A DNA stretch of 64,000 nucleotides from Paenibacillus kyungheensis. Lineage in GTDB: Bacteria > Bacillota > Bacilli > Paenibacillales > Paenibacillaceae. The notes beneath the pieces were generated by a model. That model was not told the DNA's origin. It ran no database searches and saw only the letters and a program-made list of their open reading frames with translations. Shown here piece after piece: positions 1 to 14,382 of the stretch; positions within the stretch are counted from its first letter, which is position 1; each line of letters opens with the position of its first letter. A program made the translations under genes and the position numbers. The DNA is taken from positions 313,501-377,500 of the forward strand of contig NZ_CP117416.1 of the NCBI RefSeq assembly GCF_028606985.1, in the 5' to 3' direction.

Positions 1-459
1 GAAGTTTATGAGTTAAAGCCTATGAGCTATCGTACTAATTCTAAAAAACATGCTTCTGCACTAAAACAACTTAATAATTACGTTAATGGTATAAATGCAA
101 ATGGATTTTTAAATGATCCTAAGGCAACTGCTACAAAAGGAACAAAGTTTAATCCAAATGGATTAGTAATTAATGATCCATTTGATTCAAATAAAGTTAT
201 CAAATTCTATACGTATGATGATGATCCAGGGATGATATATTATGATTCATTAGACAGAGAAAAACCAAATGAAGATTTAAAAGTAGTACCAGAGCCTAAA
301 ACAAGTGAAATATGGGATGCATTATCAGGGTTTTTCGCACCTTCATATCGACCTAATGGAATACCTTTGCCTAATGGACTGCCACCTTTAGGTGGTGACA
401 AAGGAAATGGAGGTTTGACTCCATTTCCAATTCCTATCCCCAAATATATTATTCCATAA
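1..459 (+). CDS. C-terminal end of a polymorphic toxin (REase-like nuclease tip), 5' end outside window
   Basis: The reading frame is already open at base 1 (it reads E-V-Y-E-L-K-P before the first ATG at 22), so this is the 3' end of a longer gene, not a 145-aa protein. The E-x-K in 'YELKP', followed by a helix with 'ALKQLNNYV', resembles the ExK half of the PD-(D/E)xK active site found in restriction-endonuclease-fold tips of polymorphic toxins; this family assignment is inference. The last 50 residues are rich in Pro and Gly and end in 'PIPIPKYIIP'. The stop lies 13 bases before an immunity-like gene, the classic toxin-immunity arrangement. The N-terminal delivery region is not in the window, so the secretion route is unknown. 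Confidence 0.75.
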   Translation, partial: EVYELKPMSYRTNSKKHASALKQLNNYVNGINANGFLNDPKATATKGTKFNPNGLVINDPFDSNKVIKFYTYDDDPGMIYYDSLDREKPNEDLKVVPEPKTSEIWDALSGFFAPSYRPNGIPLPNGLPPLGGDKGNGGLTPFPIPIPKYIIP

Positions 460-472
460 GATGGAGGAGAAA

Positions 473-1165
473 ATGAAAATACTATCAATAATAAAAATAG
501 TAATGAGTAAAGAATTGGAAAAATTAGGTTTCAAATATCAGAAAGAAAACGATGCTTGGTTATTTATAAGAAATAATAATGGGAATGTAGAAGGTATAAG
601 AATTGAAAAAAGTAATTGGGAAAAAAATTCAATAAGGTTTCGTTTTTTTAATAGCGGAGGACAAATCAGTAGCTTTAGATTAACTGGAGAACGTGGAGAA
701 TCATGGTATTACTATGAAAATGAATCTGATTTACGAAATATATTGATTGAAATTTTAGAAATCACTAACAAGTATGCACTTAAATGGTGGAATGAAAATC
801 AGCCTATTGATAGTTATCCCAATGAATTAAGAACAATGTTAAATCATAAAGAAGATTTTCAACTAAGTTCTACTGATCCACAAATGCTAGTTAATGTAGA
901 GGAACTCTTACGCAAACATCCTAAAAAAGATGTAGTGATTGCAATGACTTACTTTTTAGGAAATATATTTATTGAGAACTTAGGTGGAGAGTGGTCATAT
1001 AATGAGAAGAAAATTCCTTATATAAAACACATTGGAGGATTTGATTTTTTGAATCGAGAAATGTATGATCCAATAAAAAATTTTCTAGATTCTCCTTTTT
1101 CAGAAAGTTTATTATCCTATTATAAAAGTTTTGAAGAAACAGTCTCTAACCTCAAACAAGGCTGA
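473..1165 (+). CDS. Putative immunity protein, DUF4304-like paralogue 1
   Basis: A soluble protein of about 230 residues without signal peptide or membrane segment. The ATG at 473 is preferred over the one at 461 because GGAGGA lies between them, 4 bases upstream of 473. The N-terminal half ('LEKLGFKYQKENDAWLFIR') resembles the DUF4304 pattern often seen as toxin immunity; the C-terminal half carries 'KHIGGFDFLN'. Paralogues follow at 1279 and 2201 and share the LGF...WLFIR, W-K-x-x, YFxG and HIGG blocks. Directly downstream of the toxin tip, it is the likely cognate immunity protein. The family name is tentative; the immunity role is inferred from position. Confidence 0.7.
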   Translation: MKILSIIKIVMSKELEKLGFKYQKENDAWLFIRNNNGNVEGIRIEKSNWEKNSIRFRFFNSGGQISSFRLTGERGESWYYYENESDLRNILIEILEITNKYALKWWNENQPIDSYPNELRTMLNHKEDFQLSSTDPQMLVNVEELLRKHPKKDVVIAMTYFLGNIFIENLGGEWSYNEKKIPYIKHIGGFDFLNREMYDPIKNFLDSPFSESLLSYYKSFEETVSNLKQG

Positions 1166-1182
1166 TTTAAAAGTATATTGTA

Positions 1183-1214
1183 TAGCCACATTAATATGTT
1201 GATGTGGCTTTTTT
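1183..1214 (+). terminator. Rho-independent terminator
   Basis: The arms AGCCACAT and ATGTGGCT flank a short AT-rich loop and are followed by a run of six T. It separates the toxin/first immunity gene from the second paralogue. Confidence 0.75.
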
Positions 1215-1278
1215 CTATACATTTTGTAGTATGAATTTAAGTTTCTAGAATAAATATAATTAAGTAGGAGGAGAAAAT

Positions 1279-1977
1279 TTGGATAAGACTATAACTTTGA
1301 AAAAGATAATGTGTAAGCCTCTTATGAAATTGGGATTTGAGTATAATAAAGAATGGAAGTTTATTCGTAAAAGCAACGGATTTGCTGAATACATTTCTTT
1401 AGATCAGAGCCAATGGCAAGACAATGTAATAAGAGTTTATTTTTCAAATGGAGAAAAAACCGTAAGTGCAAAAAGACTAATAGGTGAAAAAGCCAATGAT
1501 TGGTTTGAATTTCATGATGAGAAGTCTTTAGAAAAAGTCTTATTGAGTATTTTAAATATTACAGAAAAATTAGGATTACAATGGTTTAAAGAAAATGTGC
1601 CTAAAATTACTTTTTGCCCGTTTCTAGTTGAGATTTTGGATGGAAAACATCAAGATGAACTAGAGACTTTTTTTAGTTAGACTTTGTTGAAGAGAGATGA
1701 TCCTAATTCTCTTATACACGCAGAAAGTTTTTTGTTAAAGAATTCGAACGAGAAAGATATAGCGAAAATTAGTTATTTTTTTGGTGAATTAATTATTTAT
1801 AATTTAAAAGGAAAATGGGATATTGATGAATTTGGAGTTCCCATTTTAAGCCATATTGGAGGAAAAGAAGGCATGAAAAAAAATCCTTATAAAATTGTGT
1901 CTCGATTTATAGTTAATCCTCAATTAAACGATCTTATAGGGCATTATAATATTTTGAAAGATTTAGTTAAAAAATAA
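1279..1977 (+). pseudogene. Immunity paralogue 2 interrupted by an in-frame amber stop
   Basis: TTG start behind AGGAGGA. The frame codes for 133 residues, meets TAG at 1678-1680, then continues without a shift for 98 more codons to TAA at 1975-1977. The joined product would be about 231 residues, the length of both neighbouring paralogues. The part after the TAG still carries the family blocks ('SYFFGELIIYNL', 'LSHIGG'). So this is one gene with a single nonsense codon, not two genes. The second half has no convincing ribosome site. The 133-aa N-terminal half might still be made. A sequencing error or readthrough cannot be excluded. Confidence 0.75.
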
Positions 1978-1998
1978 GTTTTAGTTATATGCTAAAAA

Positions 1999-2043
1999 AT
2001 ATGATAATCACAAGTAGGTAATTTTTGCTTGTGATTATCATAT
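1999..2043. repeat. Perfect 16-bp inverted repeat
   Basis: The arms 1999-2014 and 2028-2043 are perfect reverse complements with a 13-base loop. No T-run follows on the plus strand, so it is not a standard terminator for the upstream genes; it may cap or protect the 3' end of the transcript. Confidence 0.6.
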
Positions 2044-2200
2044 AATAGTATTAGATTTGATAAATTACATATGATTGAATGTCGAGTTATAGCACTAATC
2101 GAAATTTTCACTAATTTAATATATAAAAATAAAAGATTGGTATAACAGTTTTCTTCTCAGAATTCCCTATGGTTCCTTAGATTAGAGGAGGATTTATATC

Positions 2201-2917
2201 ATGAGTATAAGTAAAATGATTGAACAAATAATGGGAGATAGGCTCAAAAAACTAGGATTTAATTATGAAAAGTCAGAAAATCTTTGGCTTTTCATCAGGA
2301 AAAAAAGTGGAACTACAGAAGGAATTCAAATTGATAAAGGTAAATGGCAGAAAAAAGCATTTAGATTGACCTATTATAAAGATGGAAAATCTATAGATAG
2401 TTTTCAATTTTTAGGTGGAGCTATCACGCAGCAGTGGCATTATTATGAAGATCAAGAATCCGCTCAAAAAATAATAGAGAAATTTTTGGAGATTACTGAA
2501 CAATATGGTTTACATTGGTTTGAGGAAAATGAAGCTAAATATATAAAATTTGATCAAAATATTTTAAGCCAAGATTTTACTAATGAACTGAAAATATTTA
2601 TAGAAGAATATAAGCTTTATTATTCAGATCCTAATTGTTTAAGTAAGATAGAACAAATCTTAGAACAAAATCCTACGCTTGAAAATATTTCTTTGGCAAA
2701 CCGTTTCTTCGGAGAATATATTATTCATCAATTAGGGGCTGAATGGGATTTTCGTCCCAATAATGAAATTTATTTGAATCATATTGGTGGCATAAAAAAC
2801 TTTAATAAAGGAACATTTCGAATTATTGATAACTATATATCTGACCCTAACATGCATTCGATCAATAAAAGTTATCTGACTATAAAAAATACAGTAGAAA
2901 ATATTAAATCATCTTAA
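2201..2917 (+). CDS. Putative immunity protein, DUF4304-like paralogue 3
   Basis: An intact 238-aa protein behind GAGGAGG. It aligns along its whole length with the products at 473 and 1279: 'LKKLGFNYEKSENLWLFIRK' at the N-terminus, a W-K/Q-K block near residue 45, 'RFFGEYIIHQLGAEW' near 165 and 'NHIGGIKNF' near 190. No signal peptide or membrane segment, so it should act in the cytoplasm. The family is not firmly identified. The tandem copies suggest immunity to variants of one toxin type, which is inference from context. Confidence 0.7.
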   Translation: MSISKMIEQIMGDRLKKLGFNYEKSENLWLFIRKKSGTTEGIQIDKGKWQKKAFRLTYYKDGKSIDSFQFLGGAITQQWHYYEDQESAQKIIEKFLEITEQYGLHWFEENEAKYIKFDQNILSQDFTNELKIFIEEYKLYYSDPNCLSKIEQILEQNPTLENISLANRFFGEYIIHQLGAEWDFRPNNEIYLNHIGGIKNFNKGTFRIIDNYISDPNMHSINKSYLTIKNTVENIKSS

Positions 2918-3056
2918 ATTATTTTATTGAAGAAGCTATATCAATCATTACTACATGTGATTAAAAATTTGGGGAAAGTTGAATCTTTTTCAAATGTATT
3001 AGTAGTATTACTTTAATGTGTTTCTAATTCTTCACAATTATTTAGGGAGGAATACA

Positions 3057-3500
3057 ATGATAAGAAATAGTGTCTCCATCTATAAAAGTAAGAAGAATAA
3101 CAATATTTTTATAGTTCCTTCAGGATTTCTGGAAAATGGCATACGAACTACGATCAATAAGCCCATTATTCTAGGTGAGCATTACAATGCAGAAATATTA
3201 GGAGAAAGTTTGAAAAAGGGTTACGATATCATTTCGAATCAGGAGTTTCAAAAAGAAGATATCGGAGTTTTAGTGGTTAATGAAGTTACGGGGATTAAAA
3301 GTTTTTCGAGTTTTTCTAAGCAATATTTTTGCGTTTCTTCTGGTTATGACTCCATGAATGGATATGATTTTTACTCATTGATAAGAGGAAAAGATGGATC
3401 ATATATGTATCCAGCTAACCCTTTCATTGAACTTTCGCCAGATGCTGATTATATCAGTATTGGAGCAGCTATTATTAAAGCTTTTGAATCGTGTGAGTAA
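3057..3500 (+). CDS. Putative CdiI/DUF1436-like immunity protein
   Basis: The ATG at 3057 is chosen because GGGAGGA lies 7 bases upstream; a GTG at 3018 has no ribosome site. The 147-aa product starts 'MIRNSVSIYKSKKNNNIFIV', has a central 'SFSKQYFCVSS', and ends with 'GAAIIKAFESCE'. The short N-terminal beta strand with a tyrosine, and the C-terminal pattern of a small residue followed by an A-I-I-x-A helix, recall the DUF1436/CdiI immunity proteins of contact-dependent inhibition. The match is from memory of the family, not a search, and is moderate. It has its own ribosome site and is followed by a strong hairpin. Confidence 0.6.
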   Translation: MIRNSVSIYKSKKNNNIFIVPSGFLENGIRTTINKPIILGEHYNAEILGESLKKGYDIISNQEFQKEDIGVLVVNEVTGIKSFSSFSKQYFCVSSGYDSMNGYDFYSLIRGKDGSYMYPANPFIELSPDADYISIGAAIIKAFESCE

Positions 3501-3504
3501 CATG

Positions 3505-3540
3505 ATGAGTCTAACTGAGGCATAACTCAGTTGGACTCAT
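3505..3540 (+). repeat. 15-bp hairpin after the CdiI-like gene
   Basis: The arms 3505-3519 and 3526-3540 pair over 15 bases with one G-U and a 6-base loop. The tail is only AT-rich, with no clean T-run, so termination would be inefficient. Confidence 0.6.
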
Positions 3541-3613
3541 AAATAATTTAACAGACGAATTTTTACATAATGAAAATATAGTATTACCTTTATCAGAAGA
3601 TAGGGAGGAAAAC

Positions 3614-4330
3614 ATGTTACAGTTGCACACTATGATACTTTGGTCTAAACCAAAAGAAAAAGATTTTGAGAGTTTAGCTAAAACGGCTTATAGAATAATG
3701 GAAGTGTTAAAAGAATTTGGTTCAGAGGTAGAGCCAAAATATCTAACAGTAAATAGAAAAAAAGATGCTGTTCCTTTTGAATGGAGTTACGAGAATTTTA
3801 GAAATACTTTAAAAAAGGGAGTAAACAAAGAAGGAGGTGTAGAGTTTCCTGAATTAGGATACTCTATTGATTTTTTTTCATCTTTGGAGTCTCAACATTC
3901 TTCAAGTATAAGAATGAAAATAGGAAATCACAATTCCGAATTTGTTGATAATTTAGTGATTCAATTTCCTAAATTTTATTCTATCGAAAAAATAAATCAA
4001 GATAAAGATAAGATCAAAGTGTTATTTAACCAATGTATTCATCTATTTCAACCTTATTGGGGATGCATATCTAATAGTGTGAACATAGATAGATTTGATA
4101 ATTATGCTAAAAATGATAAACCCTCAACCTTGCATTGGCTAAATTATTGGGGAGAAGATATATTAAGAAATATACCAGCCATAAAAGCTATGTCTGTTCC
4201 TGTATATTACACTGAACCGATAGAGAAAGGTTGGTTTATTCAGTTAAAAGATGACCCACTAGACGATACATTAGAGGAAGATGTTCAACTCCAAGCTGAA
4301 GCTAACAAATATTATGGTCTTTTAAGTTGA
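3614..4330 (+). CDS. Putative Imm52-like immunity protein
   Basis: 238 aa, ATG behind AGGGAGGAA. The protein is soluble and has the mid-protein 'YWG' repeats ('FQPYWGCIS', 'LNYWGEDIL') and a C-terminal 'LQAEANKYYG' that I associate with the Imm52 family of polymorphic-toxin immunity proteins. The assignment is from motif memory and is moderate. A relic of a second, related C-terminus lies at 5915-5989. There is no sign of truncation. It presumably binds a toxin tip in the cytoplasm; the toxin is not in the window. Confidence 0.6.
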   Translation: MLQLHTMILWSKPKEKDFESLAKTAYRIMEVLKEFGSEVEPKYLTVNRKKDAVPFEWSYENFRNTLKKGVNKEGGVEFPELGYSIDFFSSLESQHSSSIRMKIGNHNSEFVDNLVIQFPKFYSIEKINQDKDKIKVLFNQCIHLFQPYWGCISNSVNIDRFDNYAKNDKPSTLHWLNYWGEDILRNIPAIKAMSVPVYYTEPIEKGWFIQLKDDPLDDTLEEDVQLQAEANKYYGLLS

Positions 4331-4461
4331 TTCACTGAATTTTATTATTTAACTTAATTAAAATGAGATAGCTGGAGAGGTTAATAGGTTTGAAATATCT
4401 AATTCAACAATATTCATTGAATTAAGAAAGAACAACAATTTAATATTTTAGTACGTTATTC

Positions 4462-5070
4462 ATGAATAAGCTGGAGGTGCTACAGATAGAATATCAATAT
4501 AAGATGATGATCCCTCCATTTGAGATGGATGAATATTCAAAATTAACTAAACAACAAGCGCAAGAGTACTTTGATTGGTTTACAACACAAATTCCAGAGA
4601 GAATTGAGATATTGTTAGGAGCCATAGAATCATCCGGTGAGAAAAATTTAGAACAATTTGATATGACACCAGAATCATTAAAGCCACTTTGGTCATGGTT
4701 AAAGAAGAATATAAAAACTACACCTAAATCTCAGGCTGAAATGAATGAACTAAAAAGAACTCTACCTAATTGGATATTTGAAGATGTAAATGACTGGAAG
4801 CTTGATTCCTCAACATTGGTATTGGCAATGGATGTATCTTTATATTTTGCTGAAGTCTTTCTTAAAAATTATTCAAATCTATATTGGAATATATTAAGCA
4901 AACCTAAATCGCATGTTGATCTTAATAAACCTGTTATTATTGGTTTTAAGAATGCACCCTTATATCCTCCTAGAATTATCCGTAATTCATGTAGTTGCTA
5001 TGCAGAAGGGGATTCAAGTAAAAATTTACTGTCCTTATATGAAGTTTGGAGAAATTTTATAAAAATATAA
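4462..5070 (+). CDS. Hypothetical protein, probable immunity protein
   Basis: 202 aa, soluble. The ATG at 4462 has no clear ribosome site; another possible start is the Met-Met pair at residues 15-16. The C-terminus has 'PRIIRNSCSCYAEGD', with two closely spaced cysteines, and several tryptophans punctuate the middle. I do not recognise the family. Its place between two immunity-type genes, small size and matching low GC support an immunity role, which is inference. Confidence 0.55.
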   Translation: MNKLEVLQIEYQYKMMIPPFEMDEYSKLTKQQAQEYFDWFTTQIPERIEILLGAIESSGEKNLEQFDMTPESLKPLWSWLKKNIKTTPKSQAEMNELKRTLPNWIFEDVNDWKLDSSTLVLAMDVSLYFAEVFLKNYSNLYWNILSKPKSHVDLNKPVIIGFKNAPLYPPRIIRNSCSCYAEGDSSKNLLSLYEVWRNFIKI

Positions 5071-5196
5071 TGACGTAGTGCATAAATTGATTAAGTATGT
5101 GGAGATAAATTAATAAATATTTGTGCCAAGAAATTAATAACATAAATAGGATCTACAAATGAATAGTGCTAACGTTTAAAATAGAGGAGTTTTAAC

Positions 5197-5499
5197 ATGT
5201 TAGAAACTTTTGATTTTAGAGATGGAAAAGTTAATTTTAATTATTTTGGGAAAATAGATTATAATTCGTCTCCGCAAGAAGATGATTATTTTCTTAGTGA
5301 AGATATGTTATCTCTATCATATGCTGATAATAAGTATATTATTGATATAGGTTGGTATGATAGCAACCAAAGTTTTGTGATTAGTTTAATAAAAGATGAT
5401 GATTGGGAATTTCCTCAAAAAAAAGAAAAGGTTAGAAATAAAGAAAAAATAGAAGAAGTGTTAACAAAATTTATAGAGTTAGTTTATGAAAATATATAA
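5197..5499 (+). CDS. Hypothetical small acidic protein, probable immunity protein
   Basis: 100 aa, ATG behind AGAGGAG. The sequence alternates short beta-type stretches ('YIIDIGWYDS', 'FVISLIKDDDWEFP') and ends in a charged helix, a small alpha+beta layout common among immunity proteins. It is strongly acidic at the N-terminal third. No family is recognised. It stands alone with about 125 bases of AT-rich spacer before it. Confidence 0.55.
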   Translation: MLETFDFRDGKVNFNYFGKIDYNSSPQEDDYFLSEDMLSLSYADNKYIIDIGWYDSNQSFVISLIKDDDWEFPQKKEKVRNKEKIEEVLTKFIELVYENI

Positions 5500-5558
5500 A
5501 TTTATTTTTTATGAAATAATATATTTTTTAAGAAAAATGATATAAGGAATGAAAACCA

Positions 5559-5876
5559 ATGTTTACAATAATTTTAGCTGTAGAAGATAATAAAATATTA
5601 GAATCTATCTCAAGACCCCATAATCAAGAGTATCTAATTCAGCATTCAGAGGATTATCCAATACTTAAAGAATTATGTATTGATGATTATGATGTATTTA
5701 ATGAACAGGATACAGACCAGCTAATATTTGAACTTAATAAAATCAAAGAAAACGTAGGAGACATAGAAGATTTAAAGCATATTGATGAAATTATTGGATT
5801 AGCTGAAAAGTGCAGGTTTATAAAGGGAAGTGTAATTGCCTTTAATCCATTCAACGCATCTTTATTAGGAGAATAA
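5559..5876 (+). CDS. Hypothetical protein, family A copy 1
   Basis: 105 aa with a weak ribosome site (AAGGAATG). It is a clear paralogue of the product at 6858: both begin M-x-T-I-I-L, share 'DYDxF', 'QLIxEL', a charged segment with 'DLxHI(D/N)EII', a 'KC' and end in 'FNPF/FTPF'. No membrane segment or signal. The family is not known to me. The pair flanks two copies of another family, giving an A-B-B-A order. Confidence 0.6.
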   Translation: MFTIILAVEDNKILESISRPHNQEYLIQHSEDYPILKELCIDDYDVFNEQDTDQLIFELNKIKENVGDIEDLKHIDEIIGLAEKCRFIKGSVIAFNPFNASLLGE

Positions 5877-5914
5877 TTTTTTAGGAAAAGCTTGTTCTTT
5901 TTATTAAGAAATAA

Positions 5915-5989
5915 ACTAGTTATAATAGGCTAAAGAAAGATCTTGAACTCCAGCTTAAAGCAAATAGATATTATAATCCTATAACCTAA
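5915..5989 (+). pseudogene. Relic of an Imm52-like C-terminus
   Basis: A short open stretch ends in 'LQLKANRYYNPIT' and a TAA at 5987-5989. It lines up with the end of the Imm52-like product at 3614 ('LQAEANKYYGLLS'), sharing L, Q, A, N and the Tyr-Tyr pair in the same spacing. There is no start codon or ribosome site and an in-frame TAA just upstream, so only the 3' tip of a lost gene remains. Confidence 0.5.
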
Positions 5990-6001
5990 TTATCTTAAGC
6001 G

Positions 6002-6041
6002 TAGCTATCTTCTATAAAAAATGATGAAGATCGCTATTTTT
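6002..6041 (+). terminator. Probable terminator
   Basis: The imperfect arms TAGCTATCTTC and GAAGATCGCTA flank an A-rich loop and are followed by TTTTT. It lies after the relic and before the family B genes. Confidence 0.5.
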
Positions 6042-6095
6042 ATAATAAATACCTACATAATTGACTATTAAAATTAAAGAGGGACAACCGACAAA

Positions 6096-6410
6096 ATGAT
6101 TAATAAACAAAAGTTTATTGAGAAAAATAGTAAAAGTGCTTATAGTTCATTGATTGATTTTTTGCATTTAGAAGTTACTGAAGATTCGTTTAACTGGATC
6201 TACGAATTTCTAAGTGTTAAAAACTTTCGTAATGGAGAATACGAGGGTACACAGTATATCCTCAAAAAATTGAATCCAGATGAAATTGTTATTGTTGATA
6301 CAGTGGCAGAAGAATTCAGTAAAGATTTATCTACAACTTATTTTCAATTAAATGTAGCAGAGATGTTATATATTATGGATGAAATAGATAAGTGGAAAAC
6401 AGGGTTTTAA
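6096..6410 (+). CDS. Hypothetical protein, family B copy 1
   Basis: 104 aa, ATG behind AGAGGGA. Paralogous to the products at 6463 and 9602: all share 'DFLxLE/DFLHIE', a 'FLSVxNFR' block, '(N/Q)GEYEG', 'LKKL' or 'LRKL', and a C-terminal 'ILDEIDEW/IMDEIDKW'. The protein is soluble and acidic. The family is not known to me; the array context suggests immunity. The neighbour at 6463 lies only 52 bases downstream. Confidence 0.6.
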   Translation: MINKQKFIEKNSKSAYSSLIDFLHLEVTEDSFNWIYEFLSVKNFRNGEYEGTQYILKKLNPDEIVIVDTVAEEFSKDLSTTYFQLNVAEMLYIMDEIDKWKTGF

Positions 6411-6462
6411 CATAAAGTAGTTTTATTGTACGACAAAATAAGAAAAGGAGAACAAGAATAAC

Positions 6463-6786
6463 ATGAATTTCCAAAAAAAATATTTTATGCTAAAGAATAC
6501 TCAACGTTCATGGGAAGTATTGATTGATTTTTTACATATAGAAATCAAAGAAGAGAATTTTAAAACAATATATACTTTTTTAAAAGTAGGAAACTTTAGA
6601 CAAGGGGAATATGAAGGCAATAAGTATGTTTTAAAAAAATTATATTCTGATGAAGTAATGATTATTGACCTTGCAATAGAAGAAAAGGATAATAATTCTT
6701 CCCCACCACCATTTTGTCTAACCGTAAATGAAATGGTGACTATTATGGATAATATTGATGAGTGGAAAAAGTACAAAATAGAGTAG
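6463..6786 (+). CDS. Hypothetical protein, family B copy 2
   Basis: 107 aa, ATG behind AAAAGGAG. It is the tandem partner of the gene at 6096, with the same blocks ('LIDFLHIE', 'VGNFRQGEYEG', 'NIDEWKK'). The two copies have clearly diverged, so the duplication is not recent. A short proline pair insertion ('SSPPPF') sits where the other copies have a charged loop. Confidence 0.6.
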   Translation: MNFQKKYFMLKNTQRSWEVLIDFLHIEIKEENFKTIYTFLKVGNFRQGEYEGNKYVLKKLYSDEVMIIDLAIEEKDNNSSPPPFCLTVNEMVTIMDNIDEWKKYKIE

Positions 6787-6857
6787 AGAACTTGAAGATA
6801 TCCGAGAAATTAATTAAAGCGATAGATCTTAATAATTCTAAAATATGGAGATAATAC

Positions 6858-7154
6858 ATGATTACAATTATATTAGAATCTAAAACAGTAGACAGAATTG
6901 CAAAAGTCTCACAACTGAATAATGAAGTTTATTTATTACAAAATAAATCTGATTATAAAATTCTAAGTGAATTGTCGACTGTTGATTATGATGCTTTTGC
7001 TAGAGAAGACATGAAGCAATTGATTATAGAACTAGAGATGTTAAAAGAAGATCTTTATGATGAAAAAGATCTACATCATATTAATGAAATTATTGAATTG
7101 ACTGATAAATGCATTAGTATTCCCGATAGCTATCTTATATTTACCCCTTTCTGA
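6858..7154 (+). CDS. Hypothetical protein, family A copy 2
   Basis: 98 aa, ATG behind TGGAGAT. It aligns end to end with the product at 5559 ('VDYDAF', 'QLIIELEMLKEDL', 'HHINEIIELTDKC', final 'FTPF'). It is slightly shorter at the C-terminus than copy 1. With 6096 and 6463 lying between the two A copies, the order A-B-B-A suggests a block duplication or insertion. Confidence 0.6.
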   Translation: MITIILESKTVDRIAKVSQLNNEVYLLQNKSDYKILSELSTVDYDAFAREDMKQLIIELEMLKEDLYDEKDLHHINEIIELTDKCISIPDSYLIFTPF

Positions 7155-7293
7155 AATGCAGTTCTTATAAAAAGAAAATATTAAAAAATCAGATTGAACT
7201 TAGCTATGTTCTGTTAACTACATAAGAATACAGTTACGTTTTTATTGAACATCTATATAGCCAATCACCACTAAAATAAGAGAGGTAATACAT

Positions 7294-7707
7294 ATGTATC
7301 AATATCATGGTTGGGCAGTACTTTCTATAAGTGTAGATGATGAGAGCAATCATATAGAAGATTCTAAAATGTTACTCCAAGTACAAAATTATATTTCTAA
7401 GATGAAAGATAATATTGATATTATTGAGGTTAAAGCTATAAATGGACAGTATCATTTTTTAATGACTGGATTTTCTAATCACAAAATCATAAGTGAATAT
7501 AATCCTATAAATATTTTTAGACATATAGGTATATTAGCTTCTGGTTCATACGGGATATTATATGTTTATGATGATGAAGATTTAGAATATTTTAACGAGT
7601 TTCGAGTGTACGTTCTGACAAGAGGAGACATTTCTGAAAAATCTGATACATATTTATCACCTTTGATTCCAACAGTAGCAAATAAGTCTGAATTCGAGAT
7701 TGAGTGA
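7294..7707 (+). CDS. Imm7-like immunity protein
   Basis: 137 aa, ATG behind AGAGAGG. It begins 'MYQYHGWAVLSIS' and carries 'GSYGILYVYDDED', 'FRVYVLTRGD' and 'DTYLSPLIPT', the ordered motifs I know from the Imm7 family of polymorphic-toxin immunity proteins. The length is typical. It is intact, with no signal peptide, so it should neutralise an incoming toxin in the cytoplasm. This is the best-supported family call in the array; the partner toxin is not in the window. Confidence 0.8.
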   Translation: MYQYHGWAVLSISVDDESNHIEDSKMLLQVQNYISKMKDNIDIIEVKAINGQYHFLMTGFSNHKIISEYNPINIFRHIGILASGSYGILYVYDDEDLEYFNEFRVYVLTRGDISEKSDTYLSPLIPTVANKSEFEIE

Positions 7708-7777
7708 ATATTACTAAATAAAACGATGAATAGGTATACGTTATTTATAGTGATAAGAAAATTGAGGTGATTTACTT

Positions 7778-8134
7778 TTGGTAAAACCTAATCTATTTTG
7801 TAAAGTTTTTATTGATACAGAAATACACCAAGATGAATTATTACATCTGATTAATAGTGAGATATCAGGAGAAGTGAATAAGTTGGAGATCACTAACTCA
7901 ACTTTAATAATTGAAATAAGAAAGAACGTTGAATTTGATAGTGTAAGAAGTGAAAATCTATCGGATGGTTTTTTGTTTTATAAATATTATTTAGAAATAG
8001 AACCATTTTCTGAAGTAGTGGAAAGAGATTATATAAAAGCAGTAGCAGATTTGTTAAAGAAACTATGGGAATCAAACATAGGAGCAGTTGCAGCTTGCGA
8101 CTTTGAAGATTTATTACCTAGAAATAGCAGATAA
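7778..8134 (+). CDS. Hypothetical protein, probable immunity protein
   Basis: 118 aa, TTG start 8 bases after GAGGTG. The product has an N-terminal beta-rich half ('LFCKVFIDTE'), a middle 'FLFYKYYLEIEP', and a C-terminal helix followed by 'AACDFEDLLPR'. The 'ACDFEDxLP' ending is one I have seen in small immunity-type proteins, but I cannot name the family. It is intact and in keeping with its neighbours in base composition. Confidence 0.6.
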   Translation: MVKPNLFCKVFIDTEIHQDELLHLINSEISGEVNKLEITNSTLIIEIRKNVEFDSVRSENLSDGFLFYKYYLEIEPFSEVVERDYIKAVADLLKKLWESNIGAVAACDFEDLLPRNSR

Positions 8135-8279
8135 TTTTTTTGGAATTTTATCTATAACCATAACTCTAGAGCAGATAGGTCTTATAATAGGATTCTAAGA
8201 AATGCAAAAACGAAATTTTGATTACTATTAACCAAGTAGCTCACTCGAAAATATATAAGAAGAATTAAGAAGGTAATTT

Positions 8280-8726
8280 ATGAAAAATAAAAAAGAAAAT
8301 CATGAAATCCCTATTTTATTAGACGCTTTAGATGATCTCCAAAATTCTCAAATGTTAGAAGAAGCTAAAGATGTAGTAGATTCTTTAATAGCAATGAGAG
8401 AACGAATGATTCCTCACCTTAAACTACAACAACGCGATTCGAGTTTTATTCATTATTTTGCGTATTATGTTATTCCCTACTGTGATACAGAATTTGTTGA
8501 ATCTATGTGGAATGAATGTAGTAGTTTTTTCTATAAAGAAGATACTACTGAATATACAGATCTTATAATCCTAGATAGTTTGATTCAGAAAAATATAGAT
8601 GTAGATAAAATAGTTGTTATTTTAAATGATAAATATACTAGAGCATATAATAGTGATCAAAACAAAAGTCTTGTTTTAGACTATTTAAAAGAAGTAAATA
8701 TATTAATAAGAAAAATAAAAAAATAG
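8280..8726 (+). CDS. Hypothetical all-helical protein, probable immunity protein
   Basis: 148 aa, ATG behind AGAAGGT. It is predicted almost wholly helical by eye: a charged N-terminal helix ('EEAKDVVDSLIAMRER'), an aromatic centre ('FIHYFAYYVIPYCD') and a C-terminal Lys/Ile-rich helix. There is no signal peptide or transmembrane segment. I do not recognise the family; the immunity role is inferred from context. Confidence 0.5.
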   Translation: MKNKKENHEIPILLDALDDLQNSQMLEEAKDVVDSLIAMRERMIPHLKLQQRDSSFIHYFAYYVIPYCDTEFVESMWNECSSFFYKEDTTEYTDLIILDSLIQKNIDVDKIVVILNDKYTRAYNSDQNKSLVLDYLKEVNILIRKIKK

Positions 8727-8845
8727 ATTAATTGCGATTTATTTTGACCTGAAGTTAGTCTCTGAAATTGTCTATTACTTGTTTCAAAGTAAGCAATTAA
8801 TAGCTATAGTACAAAGATTATATAGTAAATAAAGGAGATATGAAG

Positions 8846-9204
8846 TTGAGTATAAAAAAAATAATCGACGAATGTGATCCGATTGGACTACTTCCCTATA
8901 CTCCAGTTCAGATAACACTAGATTTTCAATTAGAATGTGGGAAGGCTATTTTGATATTATGATGTCTTATATTCAGCCTATTGCTAATGGAGAAAAAGGA
9001 TTATTTTACTATTATGATACGCATATCGGTTGGTACGATCATTCTCCTTGGAAGCTCCTGGATATTTCAGGCGTTATTAATGAATTACAAAGTATAGACA
9101 AAACACGTTTAGATCAAACATGTTCAGACATTTTAAGTGATATGTATAACTTAGCTTTACAAGCAAAAAAACAAGAAACGTATATTTGGATTACATATGA
9201 TTAG
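8846..9204 (+). pseudogene. Frameshifted immunity-like gene
   Basis: AAAGGAG at 8831-8837 sits 8 bases before a TTG at 8846 that opens a frame reading 'MSIKKIIDECDPIGLLPYTP'; this frame ends at a TGA at 8960-8962. The next frame is open from 8878 and runs to TAG at 9202-9204 with a good protein sequence ('WEGYFDIMMSYI', 'GLFYYYDTHIGWYDHSPW') but no ribosome site of its own. Joining the frames near 8905 gives about 119 residues. The N-terminal 'DPIGLLP' resembles DUF1871-like proteins, a weak resemblance. A sequencing error is the alternative. Confidence 0.6.
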
Positions 9205-9263
9205 TAAATCTATACATTGTTATCGATCTGATTTTGAAAATATTCTAAAAAGGTGAACACAAT

Positions 9264-9584
9264 ATGTCATCAATAAAAATTTATGTTGAAGATGATTCGG
9301 AGTTAGCAAATTTTGAAGCGTTAAACAAAGGTTTTCGGTCAGATGTGTATGTAGAAATAGGACAACTTAGATATAAATTAGCTGTTCACGATATCGTTAG
9401 ACTACAGCAGGATGTTCAATCAGAATACGAGAATTATGGATATTACGAGGTCTATCCAAATTTAATTATTGTAAAAGAAGTAACCATAGAAGAAATAACA
9501 CAAACAGTAACTCATTTATATCAATGTCACTTTTTTGAACACTTAAAACCAATAAACTCGATCGTGCTATGTACAGATAACTAA
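9264..9584 (+). CDS. Hypothetical protein, probable immunity protein
   Basis: 106 aa, ATG behind AAAGGTGA. The sequence alternates short strands ('SSIKIYVEDD', 'VYVEIGQLRYKLAV', 'NLIIVKEV') with a central helix, a small alpha+beta layout. No recognised family. It lies 17 bases before the third family B gene, so the two probably share a transcript. Confidence 0.55.
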   Translation: MSSIKIYVEDDSELANFEALNKGFRSDVYVEIGQLRYKLAVHDIVRLQQDVQSEYENYGYYEVYPNLIIVKEVTIEEITQTVTHLYQCHFFEHLKPINSIVLCTDN

Positions 9585-9601
9585 AATAAAAGGAGAAACA
9601 T

Positions 9602-9934
9602 ATGAAAAAGAAAATTACTAAAGAAGAATTCATTAATCAAAAAGGTGAACTTGCCTATGATGCAATGACAGATTTTTTAAATCTTGAAATCGATGATGAT
9701 TTTATTGAAGTAATGTATTCTTTTTTGAGTGTTGCGAATTTTCGGGTGGGAGAATATGAAGGCAATCAATATCTTTTGAGAAAATTAAATGCACAAGAAG
9801 TTGAAATCATTGATATTGGATCAGAAGGATTTGTTGAAGAAGAAAAGTTATTCAGATTTAATATAAGTGTAGCTGAGTTTTTATATATTTTAGACGAAAT
9901 CGATGAATGGAGAAAAGATTTCTGGAAAAATTGA
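9602..9934 (+). CDS. Hypothetical protein, family B copy 3
   Basis: 110 aa, ATG behind AAAGGAG. It carries the family B blocks ('DFLNLE', 'FLSVANFRVGEYEG', 'LRKLN', 'ILDEIDEW') seen at 6096 and 6463, with an extended N-terminus. It is separated from the other two by 3 kb, so family B was copied both in tandem and at a distance. The next gene starts 12 bases downstream. Confidence 0.6.
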   Translation: MKKKITKEEFINQKGELAYDAMTDFLNLEIDDDFIEVMYSFLSVANFRVGEYEGNQYLLRKLNAQEVEIIDIGSEGFVEEEKLFRFNISVAEFLYILDEIDEWRKDFWKN

Positions 9935-9946
9935 TGGGAGGACCAT

Positions 9947-10129
9947 ATGGAAGATATTTATCATGTAGCGTTAACTGATATGCAAAAGATAAAGCATACA
10001 TTTGAAAAGAATGAATCTCTGTATATTGCTGAGATCGATGGCAAAGAAATTCAGAGCTTAACTGATTATTTGACTCAAATGTCCGATATATTTCAATTTT
10101 CTATTATTTCAGTAAAAGGAGAATTATAA
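9947..10129 (+). CDS. Barstar-like N-terminal fragment, probably truncated
   Basis: 60 aa, ATG behind GGGAGGA. The stretch 'LYIAEIDGKEIQSLTDYL' resembles the first strand and helix of barstar-type ribonuclease inhibitors (strand, 'DGxxI', then a helix). The rest of a normal ~90-aa barstar, including the Tyr-Gly-x-Asn helix that plugs the RNase active site, is missing. The frame ends one base before the next start. It is likely a decayed immunity gene; an independent small protein is possible. Confidence 0.5.
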   Translation: MEDIYHVALTDMQKIKHTFEKNESLYIAEIDGKEIQSLTDYLTQMSDIFQFSIISVKGEL

Positions 10130-10130
10130 G

Positions 10131-10388
10131 GTGGAAATAAAGGTTACGATTCCAGATTATTCGTCTATCAATGGATTGCAATTAGATTGGGAGGAAGATT
10201 TTGAGATCTTTTCTAGCGTAGAAAATGATATCGTTAAGATCAGAGCTAATTCAGCAGGTCTAATTTCACTTGCCAAACACTTACTAATCTTAGCCCAAGC
10301 AGAAGTGCCAACAGGAAGCCATATTCACTTAGATGAATTGAATTCGTTAGAAACAGACTCAGCAGAAATAATCTTAGAGAAAATATAA
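10131..10388 (+). CDS. Imm32-like immunity protein
   Basis: 85 aa, GTG start 8 bases after AAGGAG, which lies inside the end of the barstar-like frame. The motif order 'SLAKHLLILAQ', 'VPTGSHIHLDE', 'NSLE' and a final 'IILEKI' fits the Imm32 family, a small cytoplasmic immunity family with conserved His residues. The length is normal. The one-base gap to the upstream gene suggests translational coupling or a deletion that joined them. Confidence 0.65.
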   Translation: MEIKVTIPDYSSINGLQLDWEEDFEIFSSVENDIVKIRANSAGLISLAKHLLILAQAEVPTGSHIHLDELNSLETDSAEIILEKI

Positions 10389-10502
10389 CTTCAACTGATT
10401 TTCACACTATAAAACAAGCTTTGTTACAGTGTAGAAATATCAAAAAAAGCGCGATTTCACTATATTGCATTTTTTTTAAATAATACGTTTCGATTAATTG
10501 AG

Positions 10503-10970
10503 GTGAATATTACGTTTACATATAAACGAACAAATAAAATTATTGAAGGGACACTGATCTACCGAAAAGAAGATCATTCGTTTGACTTTGAGCCAATGAG
10601 GAGTAGCGATTTTACTATACTTATTGGATATTTAAATATTACATTCGATTCTCATACTAGAGCAGCACGTCAGATATGGGGATTGAATTCTTATGACTCA
10701 TGGCAACATAAAACTTTACAAAAAACCGTATCTTTTAAAGGCGATCTATTATTAGACGCTTCAATAAAGATAGAATCAGGAGAAGCTGAAAGAATTATTG
10801 AAGTGGATACCTGGTCTACTTTTTACGATAAGCAGTCTGGTTGGATTTGTATAGGTCATCCTGAATGCCATCTTGCAGAAATAGCGATCGAATTTGCTTC
10901 TTCTACTATAGCTATTTTAGAAAACTATACCTTGAAAGCTATCTGGCTGAAGCCTCATTTTGTGACTTAA
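10503..10970 (+). CDS. Hypothetical protein, probable immunity protein; start codon uncertain
   Basis: About 155 aa. The only standard start, GTG at 10503, overlaps the ribosome site GAGGTG itself. The next codons are ATT (10509) and ACG (10512); ACG lies 6 bases after the site and may be a mutated ATG or a rare start. The product contains 'IWGLNSYDSWQHKTL', 'GDLLLDASIKI' and 'SGWICIGHPE', and is soluble. No family recognised; it closes the AT-rich array. Confidence 0.6.
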   Translation: MNITFTYKRTNKIIEGTLIYRKEDHSFDFEPMRSSDFTILIGYLNITFDSHTRAARQIWGLNSYDSWQHKTLQKTVSFKGDLLLDASIKIESGEAERIIEVDTWSTFYDKQSGWICIGHPECHLAEIAIEFASSTIAILENYTLKAIWLKPHFVT

Positions 10971-11017
10971 AATAGAGTACAACGAATAGAGATCATATTG
11001 TTAAAAAGTGTTCACAC

Positions 11018-11058
11018 AAAAAAGAGATAGATTCATTTATATGAACCTATCTCTTTTT
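11018..11058. terminator. Bidirectional terminator
   Basis: The arms AAAAAGAGATAG and CTATCTCTTTTT, with extra pairing of ATTCAT/ATGAAC, serve the array on the plus strand and the GNAT gene on the minus strand. It also marks the edge of the AT-rich array. Confidence 0.85.
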
Positions 11059-11067
11059 GATTTTACT

Positions 11068-11577
11068 TTACACCAAGTGCTTATAATACAAATTTGTAGC
11101 ATCTAATCCATCATTTCCAGACTTGGCGTAGTTCGGGATTTGTCCGGCTTGGATATAGCCTAATGACTGATAAAGAAGATTGGAAGGATCTCCATCTCGG
11201 GTATCCAGTACAAGTAGAATACGGTTTTCTTCTGTTGCTTTGTGTTCGATATGTTCCATCAGTTGGCGAGCAGTACCATGACGGCGGTAGTTCAGGTGTA
11301 CCATAAGCTTGGCTACTTCAGCTCGGTGATCTCCATTGGGCTTGGTACATAGATGTAATTGAATCGTACCGGCAATAATATTGTTGATTTTGGCAACATA
11401 CAATAATGTTCCCGGTTGTAGCACCTGTCCCCAGTAAGTATTAGCTTCTGCGTGATCCATAGGGGGAAGAAAACCGATAGATGCGCCTGCATCTACAATC
11501 TGTACCAGCATATCCGACATTTCATCCAGATACGGTTCGATATGTTGTACTTGTTCGATAACAACTGTCTGTAGCAA
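11068..11577 (-). CDS. GNAT family N-acetyltransferase
   Basis: 169 aa, TTG start behind GGAGGTG. Cytoplasmic acyl-CoA transferase of the GNAT fold: the 'AEVAKLMVHLNYRRHGTARQL' segment (near residues 86-106) is motif A, where R-R-x-G-x-A binds the pyrophosphate of acetyl-CoA; 'LVLDTRDGDPSNLLYQSLGY' follows as motif B. The substrate cannot be told from sequence. It is transcribed alone, with a terminator shared with the immunity array. Confidence 0.9.
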   Translation of the reverse strand: MLQTVVIEQVQHIEPYLDEMSDMLVQIVDAGASIGFLPPMDHAEANTYWGQVLQPGTLLYVAKINNIIAGTIQLHLCTKPNGDHRAEVAKLMVHLNYRRHGTARQLMEHIEHKATEENRILLVLDTRDGDPSNLLYQSLGYIQAGQIPNYAKSGNDGLDATNLYYKHLV

Positions 11578-13505: not shown

Positions 13506-13659
13506 AATCGCTCTCTCCTTTACACTATCCAAAGCACACCATGAATAAGTTCTACTGTAAAACATAGTAGCAGAAAAGCAAAAGTAAAGAAAAGTGATCG
13601 CTGATAAACAAAATAGATATAATAGATAGTGTATATTGACTGGAAATGGAGATACATAC

Positions 13660-14382
13660 ATGTGGATTGCATTGTTAGTAACAGGAATAGTTTATCTAGG
13701 CTACTGGTTCGTTCAGCGTATGAAGAGCAAGCGATGGAATACACCGATAAAAGTGATTATCGGATTAGATACACCGCCACCTGCTACCTTTTTTGTCAAA
13801 GAAGCCAAGCAACAGGAAGGGATAGACTTTTATCATAAAGCCACATGGTTACGTGTGAAAAGTAACGATTCGATCGCAGTTCAAGTCGAAATCGACCGTA
13901 TTCTAGCACAGATGGATCGCTTTGCTCCATCCCGGCAATCTGTCAGTGAAAAATGGGTGTTTACGACAGTCGAAGAGTGGATACTGGTAAGCAGTTATGA
14001 TCTGCCTTCTCCTGAAGATTATCAGGGGGCGCAACAATTGGAACAACTATTACAATTATTAAGCAGTAGATTTGGAGAAGTTCATTATTTTGCTCATTAT
14101 CAGACCGTTCATTATTACGCATGGGCCAAAGCAATCAACGGGCATTTAATTCGTGCATACGCATACATAAGTACAAAAGAAGATCCTCTCTGGGAAGAAG
14201 GTAGATTAACTCCTGAAGAAATACAGTTAGATTTGGATTTTCGAGATACAGGACGAATCGTGGAGTGGGAAGATAGTATAGAGGAAGAACAAAGCCATAC
14301 ACCTGATGAACATTCGGTAAAATTGATCGCTGCTGCATGGCGAGCTACAAGTGAACAGTCTGCTTTTGAGCCGAAAGGTTGA
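13660..14382 (+). CDS. Membrane-anchored protein of unknown function
   Basis: 240 aa from the ATG at 13660, which follows TGGAGAT; the frame begins earlier but without a ribosome site. One N-terminal transmembrane helix ('MWIALLVTGIVYLGYWFVQRM') is followed by a positive cluster and a soluble domain, so the bulk should face the cytoplasm. The soluble part has 'WVFTTVEEWILVSSYDLPS' and 'VHYFAHYQTVHYYAWAK', then an acidic tail. No family is recognised. It is divergent from the SgrR-like gene, sharing a 154-base intergenic region. Confidence 0.7.
   Translation: MWIALLVTGIVYLGYWFVQRMKSKRWNTPIKVIIGLDTPPPATFFVKEAKQQEGIDFYHKATWLRVKSNDSIAVQVEIDRILAQMDRFAPSRQSVSEKWVFTTVEEWILVSSYDLPSPEDYQGAQQLEQLLQLLSSRFGEVHYFAHYQTVHYYAWAKAINGHLIRAYAYISTKEDPLWEEGRLTPEEIQLDLDFRDTGRIVEWEDSIEEEQSHTPDEHSVKLIAAAWRATSEQSAFEPKG

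What the first reader, a model, noticed from the sequence alone, without database searches (positions are those of the whole stretch)
1..10970. Dense orphan-immunity island behind a polymorphic toxin tip
About twenty consecutive short plus-strand genes, each usually with its own ribosome site, sit in an AT-rich block that ends sharply at a bidirectional terminator near 11,020. Recognisable or likely immunity families (Imm7, Imm32, Imm52, CdiI/DUF1436, barstar-like) are mixed with at least seven unrecognised ones, paralogue sets and relics. This is the layout expected for an immunity reservoir of a recombining toxin locus. The unknown members are candidate new immunity families.
Basis: partly seen in the sequence, partly recalled or inferred. 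Interest (0 to 1): 0.75.

Follow-up and report, generated by a model that had tools for sequence, protein, structure and literature searches.

The report
Orphan immunity genes behind Rhs toxin
Behind a bacterial surface-toxin gene lies a row of about twenty small genes that most likely make antidotes to toxins of rival strains; such antidote stores are known, but this one is long and most of its antidote families were unnamed.

Summary
Window 461-10970 carries 20 plus-strand ORFs of at least 85 aa (about 0.1 expected by chance), mostly with ribosome sites, at 29% GC against 40% beyond, and ends at a bidirectional terminator (11019-11058). It is the tail of a WapA/Rhs-type locus: an intact YD-repeat gene (frame about 1,815 aa), three partial-core/tip cassettes, then this toxin-free tail. 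Of 15 sequence groups, two are Pfam immunity families (Imm7, Imm32). Relatives of nine groups (Imm32 and eight without an immunity name) sit directly behind Rhs toxin tips in other Paenibacillaceae; six of these nine tip types match no Pfam or NCBIfam family. No tip or core remnant was found inside the tail, and no phage relative in the searches made. Best reading: a heterogeneous polyimmunity locus, a known kind, fed by displacement of tips with loss of toxins. g06, g14, g15, g16 and g19 remain unassigned; 35 of 56 g08 relatives have no Rhs core within 10 kb. Unexpected: members of three groups also occur as cassettes in integron-like arrays (attC-like sites, XerA/IntI-like recombinase) of other Paenibacillaceae; the window itself has no such site.

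The parts
1..459 (+). 3' end of a displaced Rhs toxin tip, PD-(D/E)XK-like
   Evidence: Continues L004 11839-12459; stop between core and tip; PDDEXK_9 E=0.05, below cutoff; related tip before a g02 relative in G007, G012, G003 and, weakly, G176
461..1165 (+). g02, cognate-type immunity gene of that tip; weak DUF4304 match
   Evidence: Relatives directly behind the related tip in G007, G012, G003 and G176; DUF4304 E=5e-4, below cutoff
1184..1209 (+). terminator-like hairpin after g02
   Evidence: the number of such sites in the region (3) is no more than in shuffles (2.5)
1279..1977 (+). g03, paralogue of g02 split by a stop
2201..2917 (+). g04, paralogue of g02
3018..3500 (+). g05, likely start 3057; a remote relative sits behind a CDI EC869-like nuclease tip
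3614..4330 (+). g06, unassigned; PADLOC PDC-M17B relative
4462..5070 (+). g07, immunity family; relative directly behind an Rhs tip in Paenibacillus oenotherae
5197..5499 (+). g08, immunity family of the HGHPI-type tip; paralogue u9 upstream of the window
5559..5876 (+). g09, immunity family
6096..6410 (+). g10, immunity family
6463..6786 (+). g11, paralogue of g10
6858..7154 (+). g12, paralogue of g09
7294..7707 (+). g13, Imm7 (PF15585)
   Evidence: E=1.1e-31
7778..8134 (+). g14, unassigned; a relative shares a locus with a g05 relative in G049
8280..8726 (+). g15, unassigned, all-helical model of middling confidence
8743..8823 (+). relic resembling the 3' end of a u8-type immunity gene
8840..9204 (+). 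g16, doubtful or broken gene
9264..9584 (+). g17, immunity family of a Tse2-like tip
9602..9934 (+). g18, paralogue of g10
9947..10129 (+). g19, short, doubtful
10131..10388 (+). g20, Imm32 (PF15566)
   Evidence: E=7.2e-16; relative directly behind an Rhs tip in G015
10503..10970 (+). g21, immunity family
   Evidence: relative directly behind an Rhs tip in G075
11019..11058 (.). bidirectional terminator closing the island

Best explanation
The island is a heterogeneous polyimmunity locus at the far end of a WapA/Rhs-type toxin locus. Shown: an intact YD-repeat toxin gene with its own immunity candidate is followed by partial-core cassettes with other tips, then by a toxin-free row of about 20 small genes in 15 sequence groups. 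Shown in relatives: members of nine of these groups are encoded directly behind Rhs toxin tips. Inferred: new tip/immunity modules recombine into the main gene through the conserved core, older modules are pushed downstream, toxin parts decay and immunity genes are kept. Inferred: the kept proteins bind and block matching tips delivered by neighbouring strains, and give cover when a tip is acquired again.
Confidence: 0.88

Rival explanations
1. The tail was filled mainly by import of single immunity genes without toxins, for instance from integron-like cassette arrays present in other Paenibacillaceae, not by tip displacement.
For: Members of the g08, g10 and g17 groups occur directly before attC-like sites in G092, G017, G073, G087, G101 and G141. 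The tail holds no toxin remnant. g08, u9, g02, g04 and g12 are nearer to an outside relative than to their paralogue.
Against: 0 attC-like sites in the window, L004 or L005, and no tyrosine recombinase found there by a motif. Only 6 of 100 relatives are followed within 700 bp by such a site, while 27 of 100 follow Rhs cores.
Confidence: 0.15
2. A prophage or phage-defence module of small unknown genes.
For: g06 matches PADLOC candidate PDC-M17B (E=4.4e-10); g09 has one weak PHROG match (E=0.0022).
Against: No near DNA match of 400-11000 in 50,697 phage records, none by protein for g02, g07, g10 and g13, none in viral contigs for the g10 and g09 groups, g06 and g14; 9 of 10 genes scanned have no PADLOC match. 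The other genes were not tested against phages by protein.
Confidence: 0.03
3. Decaying debris: genes left behind by displacement and no longer under selection.
For: g03 is split, 8743-8823 is a relic, g16 and g19 are doubtful.
Against: Most reading frames are intact and 15 of 21 models have ribosome sites. The protein database holds seven relatives of g15 at 84-97% identity and three of g14 at 78-79%, besides one at 99% that may be the window's own protein.
Confidence: 0.08

Closest known systems
Heterogeneous polyimmunity loci (Zhang et al. 2012, PMC3482391)
   Same: Tandem same-strand immunity genes of unrelated families without toxin genes between them; the paper's example holds 19 immunity proteins of 13 superfamilies
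   Different: Here the row is contiguous with a toxin locus and its displaced tips; only 2 of 15 groups are Pfam immunity families; Pfam found no SUKH gene
rhs loci with dissociated tips (Jackson et al. 2009, PMC2935791)
   Same: Partial cores nearly identical to the main core, dissimilar tips, low-GC trough downstream
   Different: Enterobacterial; here some 20 immunity genes without tips follow
V. cholerae T6SS orphan immunity arrays (Kirchberger et al. 2017, PMC5361080)
   Same: Old immunity genes kept downstream while effectors are replaced
   Different: T6SS there, YD-repeat protein of WapA type here; longer and more mixed array here (the paper's worked example has six immunity genes)

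Membership tests
[quoted passage not shown]
   About 20 genes, gaps 1-223 bp; immunity role by association for 9 groups plus Imm7 by Pfam
Heterogeneous polyimmunity locus | No toxin genes or cassettes between the immunity genes | tested here: met
   None of 71 tips, and not the main core, matches 460-11100 better than E=0.11
Heterogeneous polyimmunity locus | Several unrelated families | tested here: met
   15 groups by all-against-all comparison
Heterogeneous polyimmunity locus | Gene content varies between strains | not testable with these tools
   Whole genomes are held one per species
Rhs/WapA locus with displaced tips | Partial cores with dissimilar tips behind an intact gene | tested here: met
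Sequential-displacement immunity array | A tip on the main gene in one genome is found displaced in another | tested here: met
   Reversed order of two tips between G000 and G007
Sequential-displacement immunity array | Paralogues in one genome do not cluster together | tested here: inconclusive
   By best score: true for g08, u9, g02, g04 and g12; false for g10, g11, g18 and the two parts of g03; g09 nearly a tie. No tree was built
Integron cassette array (window) | attC-like sites after the genes | tested here: not met
   0 sites in the window
Prophage module | Phage relatives of the genes | tested here: not met
   Part of the genes tested: without a match; one weak PHROG match for g09

The most novel reading that the evidence does not exclude
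Paenibacillaceae carry integron-like cassette arrays, run by a XerA/IntI-like recombinase that appears to lack the IntI-specific segment, and these arrays hold and move immunity genes against Rhs/WapA toxins, including members of three groups of this island. Immunity would thus spread without its toxin, by a dedicated cassette system, and feed reservoirs such as this one.
Probability: 0.5. Interest if true: 0.78.

Novelty: new member of a known kind. Interest (0 to 1): 0.5.

Why it matters
The island gives a ready list of immunity families with named partner tips. Six of the nine partner tip types match no Pfam or NCBIfam family, so these are candidate new toxin/immunity pairs that can be tested one by one. 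The locus also shows, in one stretch, the steps from intact toxin to displaced tip to immunity only. The integron-like arrays seen in relatives would, if confirmed, give a vehicle by which immunity spreads without its toxin.

Tried and rejected
Pfam, NCBIfam, PHROGs and PADLOC scans left most island genes unnamed; PHROGs and PADLOC were given 10 genes each, not all. Searches of PDB sequences with six groups gave nothing convincing, nor with g13. Foldseek found no good match for the g07 model (best E 1.6) or the g15 model (best E 0.4); the g15 model is weak (pLDDT 77). The second look by VIA-align put 3hlz far above the rest for g07; families absent from that list are not excluded. Rfam found nothing at gathering thresholds in six loci with the attC-like repeats. 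Sigma-70-like sites (70 against 74.5) and terminator-like sites (3 against 2.5) are no more frequent than in shuffles, so I make no operon claim. A tyrosine recombinase was sought in the window, L004 and L005 by one motif only and not found; the same kind of motif, too strict, found no recombinase beside the arrays until loosened. Paper searches: Paenibacillus with WapA and immunity protein gave 0 papers; integron, Paenibacillus and attC gave 6 and chromosomal integron with Paenibacillus gave 4, none with a title or abstract start on such arrays (listings only); integron, cassette, polymorphic toxin and immunity protein gave 2 (listing). These cover one open-access library only.
Full report
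Place and organism. The window is G000:C1:313501-377500 of a 5.26-Mb single-contig genome. I infer a member of the Paenibacillaceae; its own name was not obtained.

Observation. The tail is also the longest of its kind that I saw: 22 consecutive plus-strand ORFs (60-300 aa) over 11.2 kb after the last Rhs core, against at most 14 after any of 69 other cores in the fetched loci. Those loci were mostly chosen because they hold relatives of island genes, and some runs are cut by locus ends.

Upstream. An intact YD-repeat gene runs from L005 8361 into L004 784. It is followed by its immunity candidate u2, by u3, by a pair that looks like regulators by eye (u4, u5), and by three partial-core cassettes whose cores end near L004 6064, 8137 and 11811. 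The partial cores are 90.5-93% identical in DNA to the main core. Tips and immunity genes there are AT-rich (29-38% GC), cores 42-47%. The third cassette has a stop between core and tip; its tip fills window 1-459. I describe this and mend nothing.

Groups. All-against-all comparison gives 15 groups: g02/g03/g04, g05, g06, g07, g08 (with u9), g09/g12, g10/g11/g18, g13, g14, g15, g16, g17, g19, g20, g21. Pfam names g13 Imm7 (E=1.1e-31) and g20 Imm32 (E=7.2e-16). DUF4304 is matched weakly by g02, g03 and g04, below its cutoff. NCBIfam names none of 20 proteins scanned above a cutoff.

Test of the toxin link. Eight groups were searched in 148-197 genomes of the same family group and all 100 non-self matches were examined in context. 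Rhs core within 2 kb upstream on the same strand: g10 2 of 7, g09 5 of 10, g02 4 of 10, g08 11 of 56, g05 1 of 4, g06 0 of 3, g17 3 of 9, g21 1 of 1; together 27 of 100. Seven of the 100 had under 2 kb of upstream DNA, of which three still showed a core. A pretoxin HINT match within 2 kb upstream: 11 of 100. An Rhs core on either strand within 10 kb: 40 of 100. From 407 core matches in 148 genomes (summed, 6.1 Mb per genome assumed) the chance rate is about 0.045 per 100; other small ORFs of the same 88 loci reach 79 of 885, a control inflated by other immunity genes in those loci. g15 had no relative in 197 genomes and 9 proteins in the large database. g13, g14, g16, g19 and g20 were not searched this way.

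Partner tips. 71 tips were extracted and L204 was added. g02 group: tips related to window 1-459, in G007, G012 and G003, and by a weaker match in G176. g08: tips ending in a shared HGHPI stretch, in seven loci (L131, L132, L135, L136, L153, L176, L180). g09: related tips in L075 and L078. g10: L090. g20: L198. g21: L152. g07: L204 of Paenibacillus oenotherae, one of three loci found; L206 (Cohnella ginsengisoli) has no Rhs core in reach and a split frame. g17: L146, a tip with a PT-HINT domain (E=2.9e-31) ending in a Tse2-like domain (E=2.5e-4, below Pfam's cutoff). g05: a remote relative behind a CDI EC869-like nuclease (PF21111, E=1.3e-13). The tips of g07, g08, g09, g10, g20 and g21 have no Pfam match at E<=0.001 and none in NCBIfam for the ones scanned (L131, L152, L078, L090, L204, L198).

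Relics. Against 460-11100 the best of 71 tips reaches E=0.11, and the four tips of the window's own type, whose rows one search did not print, give nothing at E<=1. The main core's best match is E=1.3.

Displacement. In G007 a tip like window 1-459 with a g02 relative is on an intact main gene, and the tip that is on the main gene of G000 is a fragment farther down, followed by u2 and u3 relatives. So the two genomes hold the same two modules in reversed order. A g07 relative and a u8 relative lie toward the end of that G007 array.

Integron-like arrays in relatives. Several relatives of island genes lie among imperfect palindromes that start TAAC and end GTTA. A pattern scan found them in 10 of 96 loci, none in one shuffle of each locus (1.6 Mb in all), none in the window (the palindromes were counted there on both strands). 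In extended stretches, with a somewhat wider pattern that was not itself shuffled, there are 89 sites in 10 genomes; the four bases after one site are the reverse complement of the four before the next in 50 of 65 neighbouring pairs, against a mean of 4.6 and a maximum of 14 in 5,000 shuffles. By established knowledge this linkage between neighbouring sites is what integron cassettes show. A full-length tyrosine recombinase lies within about 2.5 kb of sites in G092, G006 and G021, and broken or partial copies near those of G073, G087 and G004. It matches NF040815 (XerA/integron integrase; above the cutoff in one of three) and TIGR02249 (integron integrase) below its cutoff, in two separate stretches; my inference that the IntI-specific segment is missing rests on that gap. 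XerC and XerD models match nearly as well, also below their cutoffs. 51 cassette proteins (of 62 ORFs listed; 11 short or oppositely oriented ones dropped) include one WapI-like immunity protein, TIR, HicB, NUDIX and acetyltransferase families. Members of the g08, g10 and g17 groups sit 53-220 bp before such sites (6 of 100 relatives). I could not search the window's genome for these sites.

Literature seen. PMC3482391: find passages and the whole section on polyimmunity loci. PMC2935791: abstract, outline and the section on displacement. PMC5361080: abstract with the start of the introduction, and the model section. PMC3792639: one passage. All other papers: search listings only.

Verdict. 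The island is a long heterogeneous polyimmunity locus tied to a WapA/Rhs-type locus: a new member of a known kind, with nine groups tied to partner tips. What is strange, and deserves its own study, is the second vehicle seen in relatives.

Noticed in passing
L157, L189, L091, L165, L162/L216, L166, L220, L218, L093, L149: Integron-like arrays in other Paenibacillaceae: 89 attC-like sites in 10 genomes, neighbouring sites linked by complementary ends in 50 of 65 pairs, with a XerA/IntI-like recombinase or its remnant near six arrays; cassettes include immunity-type genes.
   Followed up: partly
G000:C1:4813644-4813958 (L199): A second full-length YD-repeat toxin gene on the minus strand with a different tip.
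   Followed up: no
L004 2260-3801: A pair that looks like regulators by eye (u4, u5) after the main toxin; relatives follow a g02 relative in G176, L084 10869-12230.
   Followed up: no
window 13636-14382: A plus-strand gene beyond the terminator is related (27% identity, E=1.7e-17) to the gene that follows the g07 relative in the G007 array, L074 8272-7667; possibly one more family shared with such arrays.
   Followed up: partly
window 3614-4330: g06 matches PADLOC phage-defence candidate PDC-M17B (E=4.4e-10); two nearby g06 relatives lie in G012.
   Followed up: partly
L189 around 6800-7300 and on: Tandem repeats beside the cassette array of G073 (54 matches of one seed).
   Followed up: no
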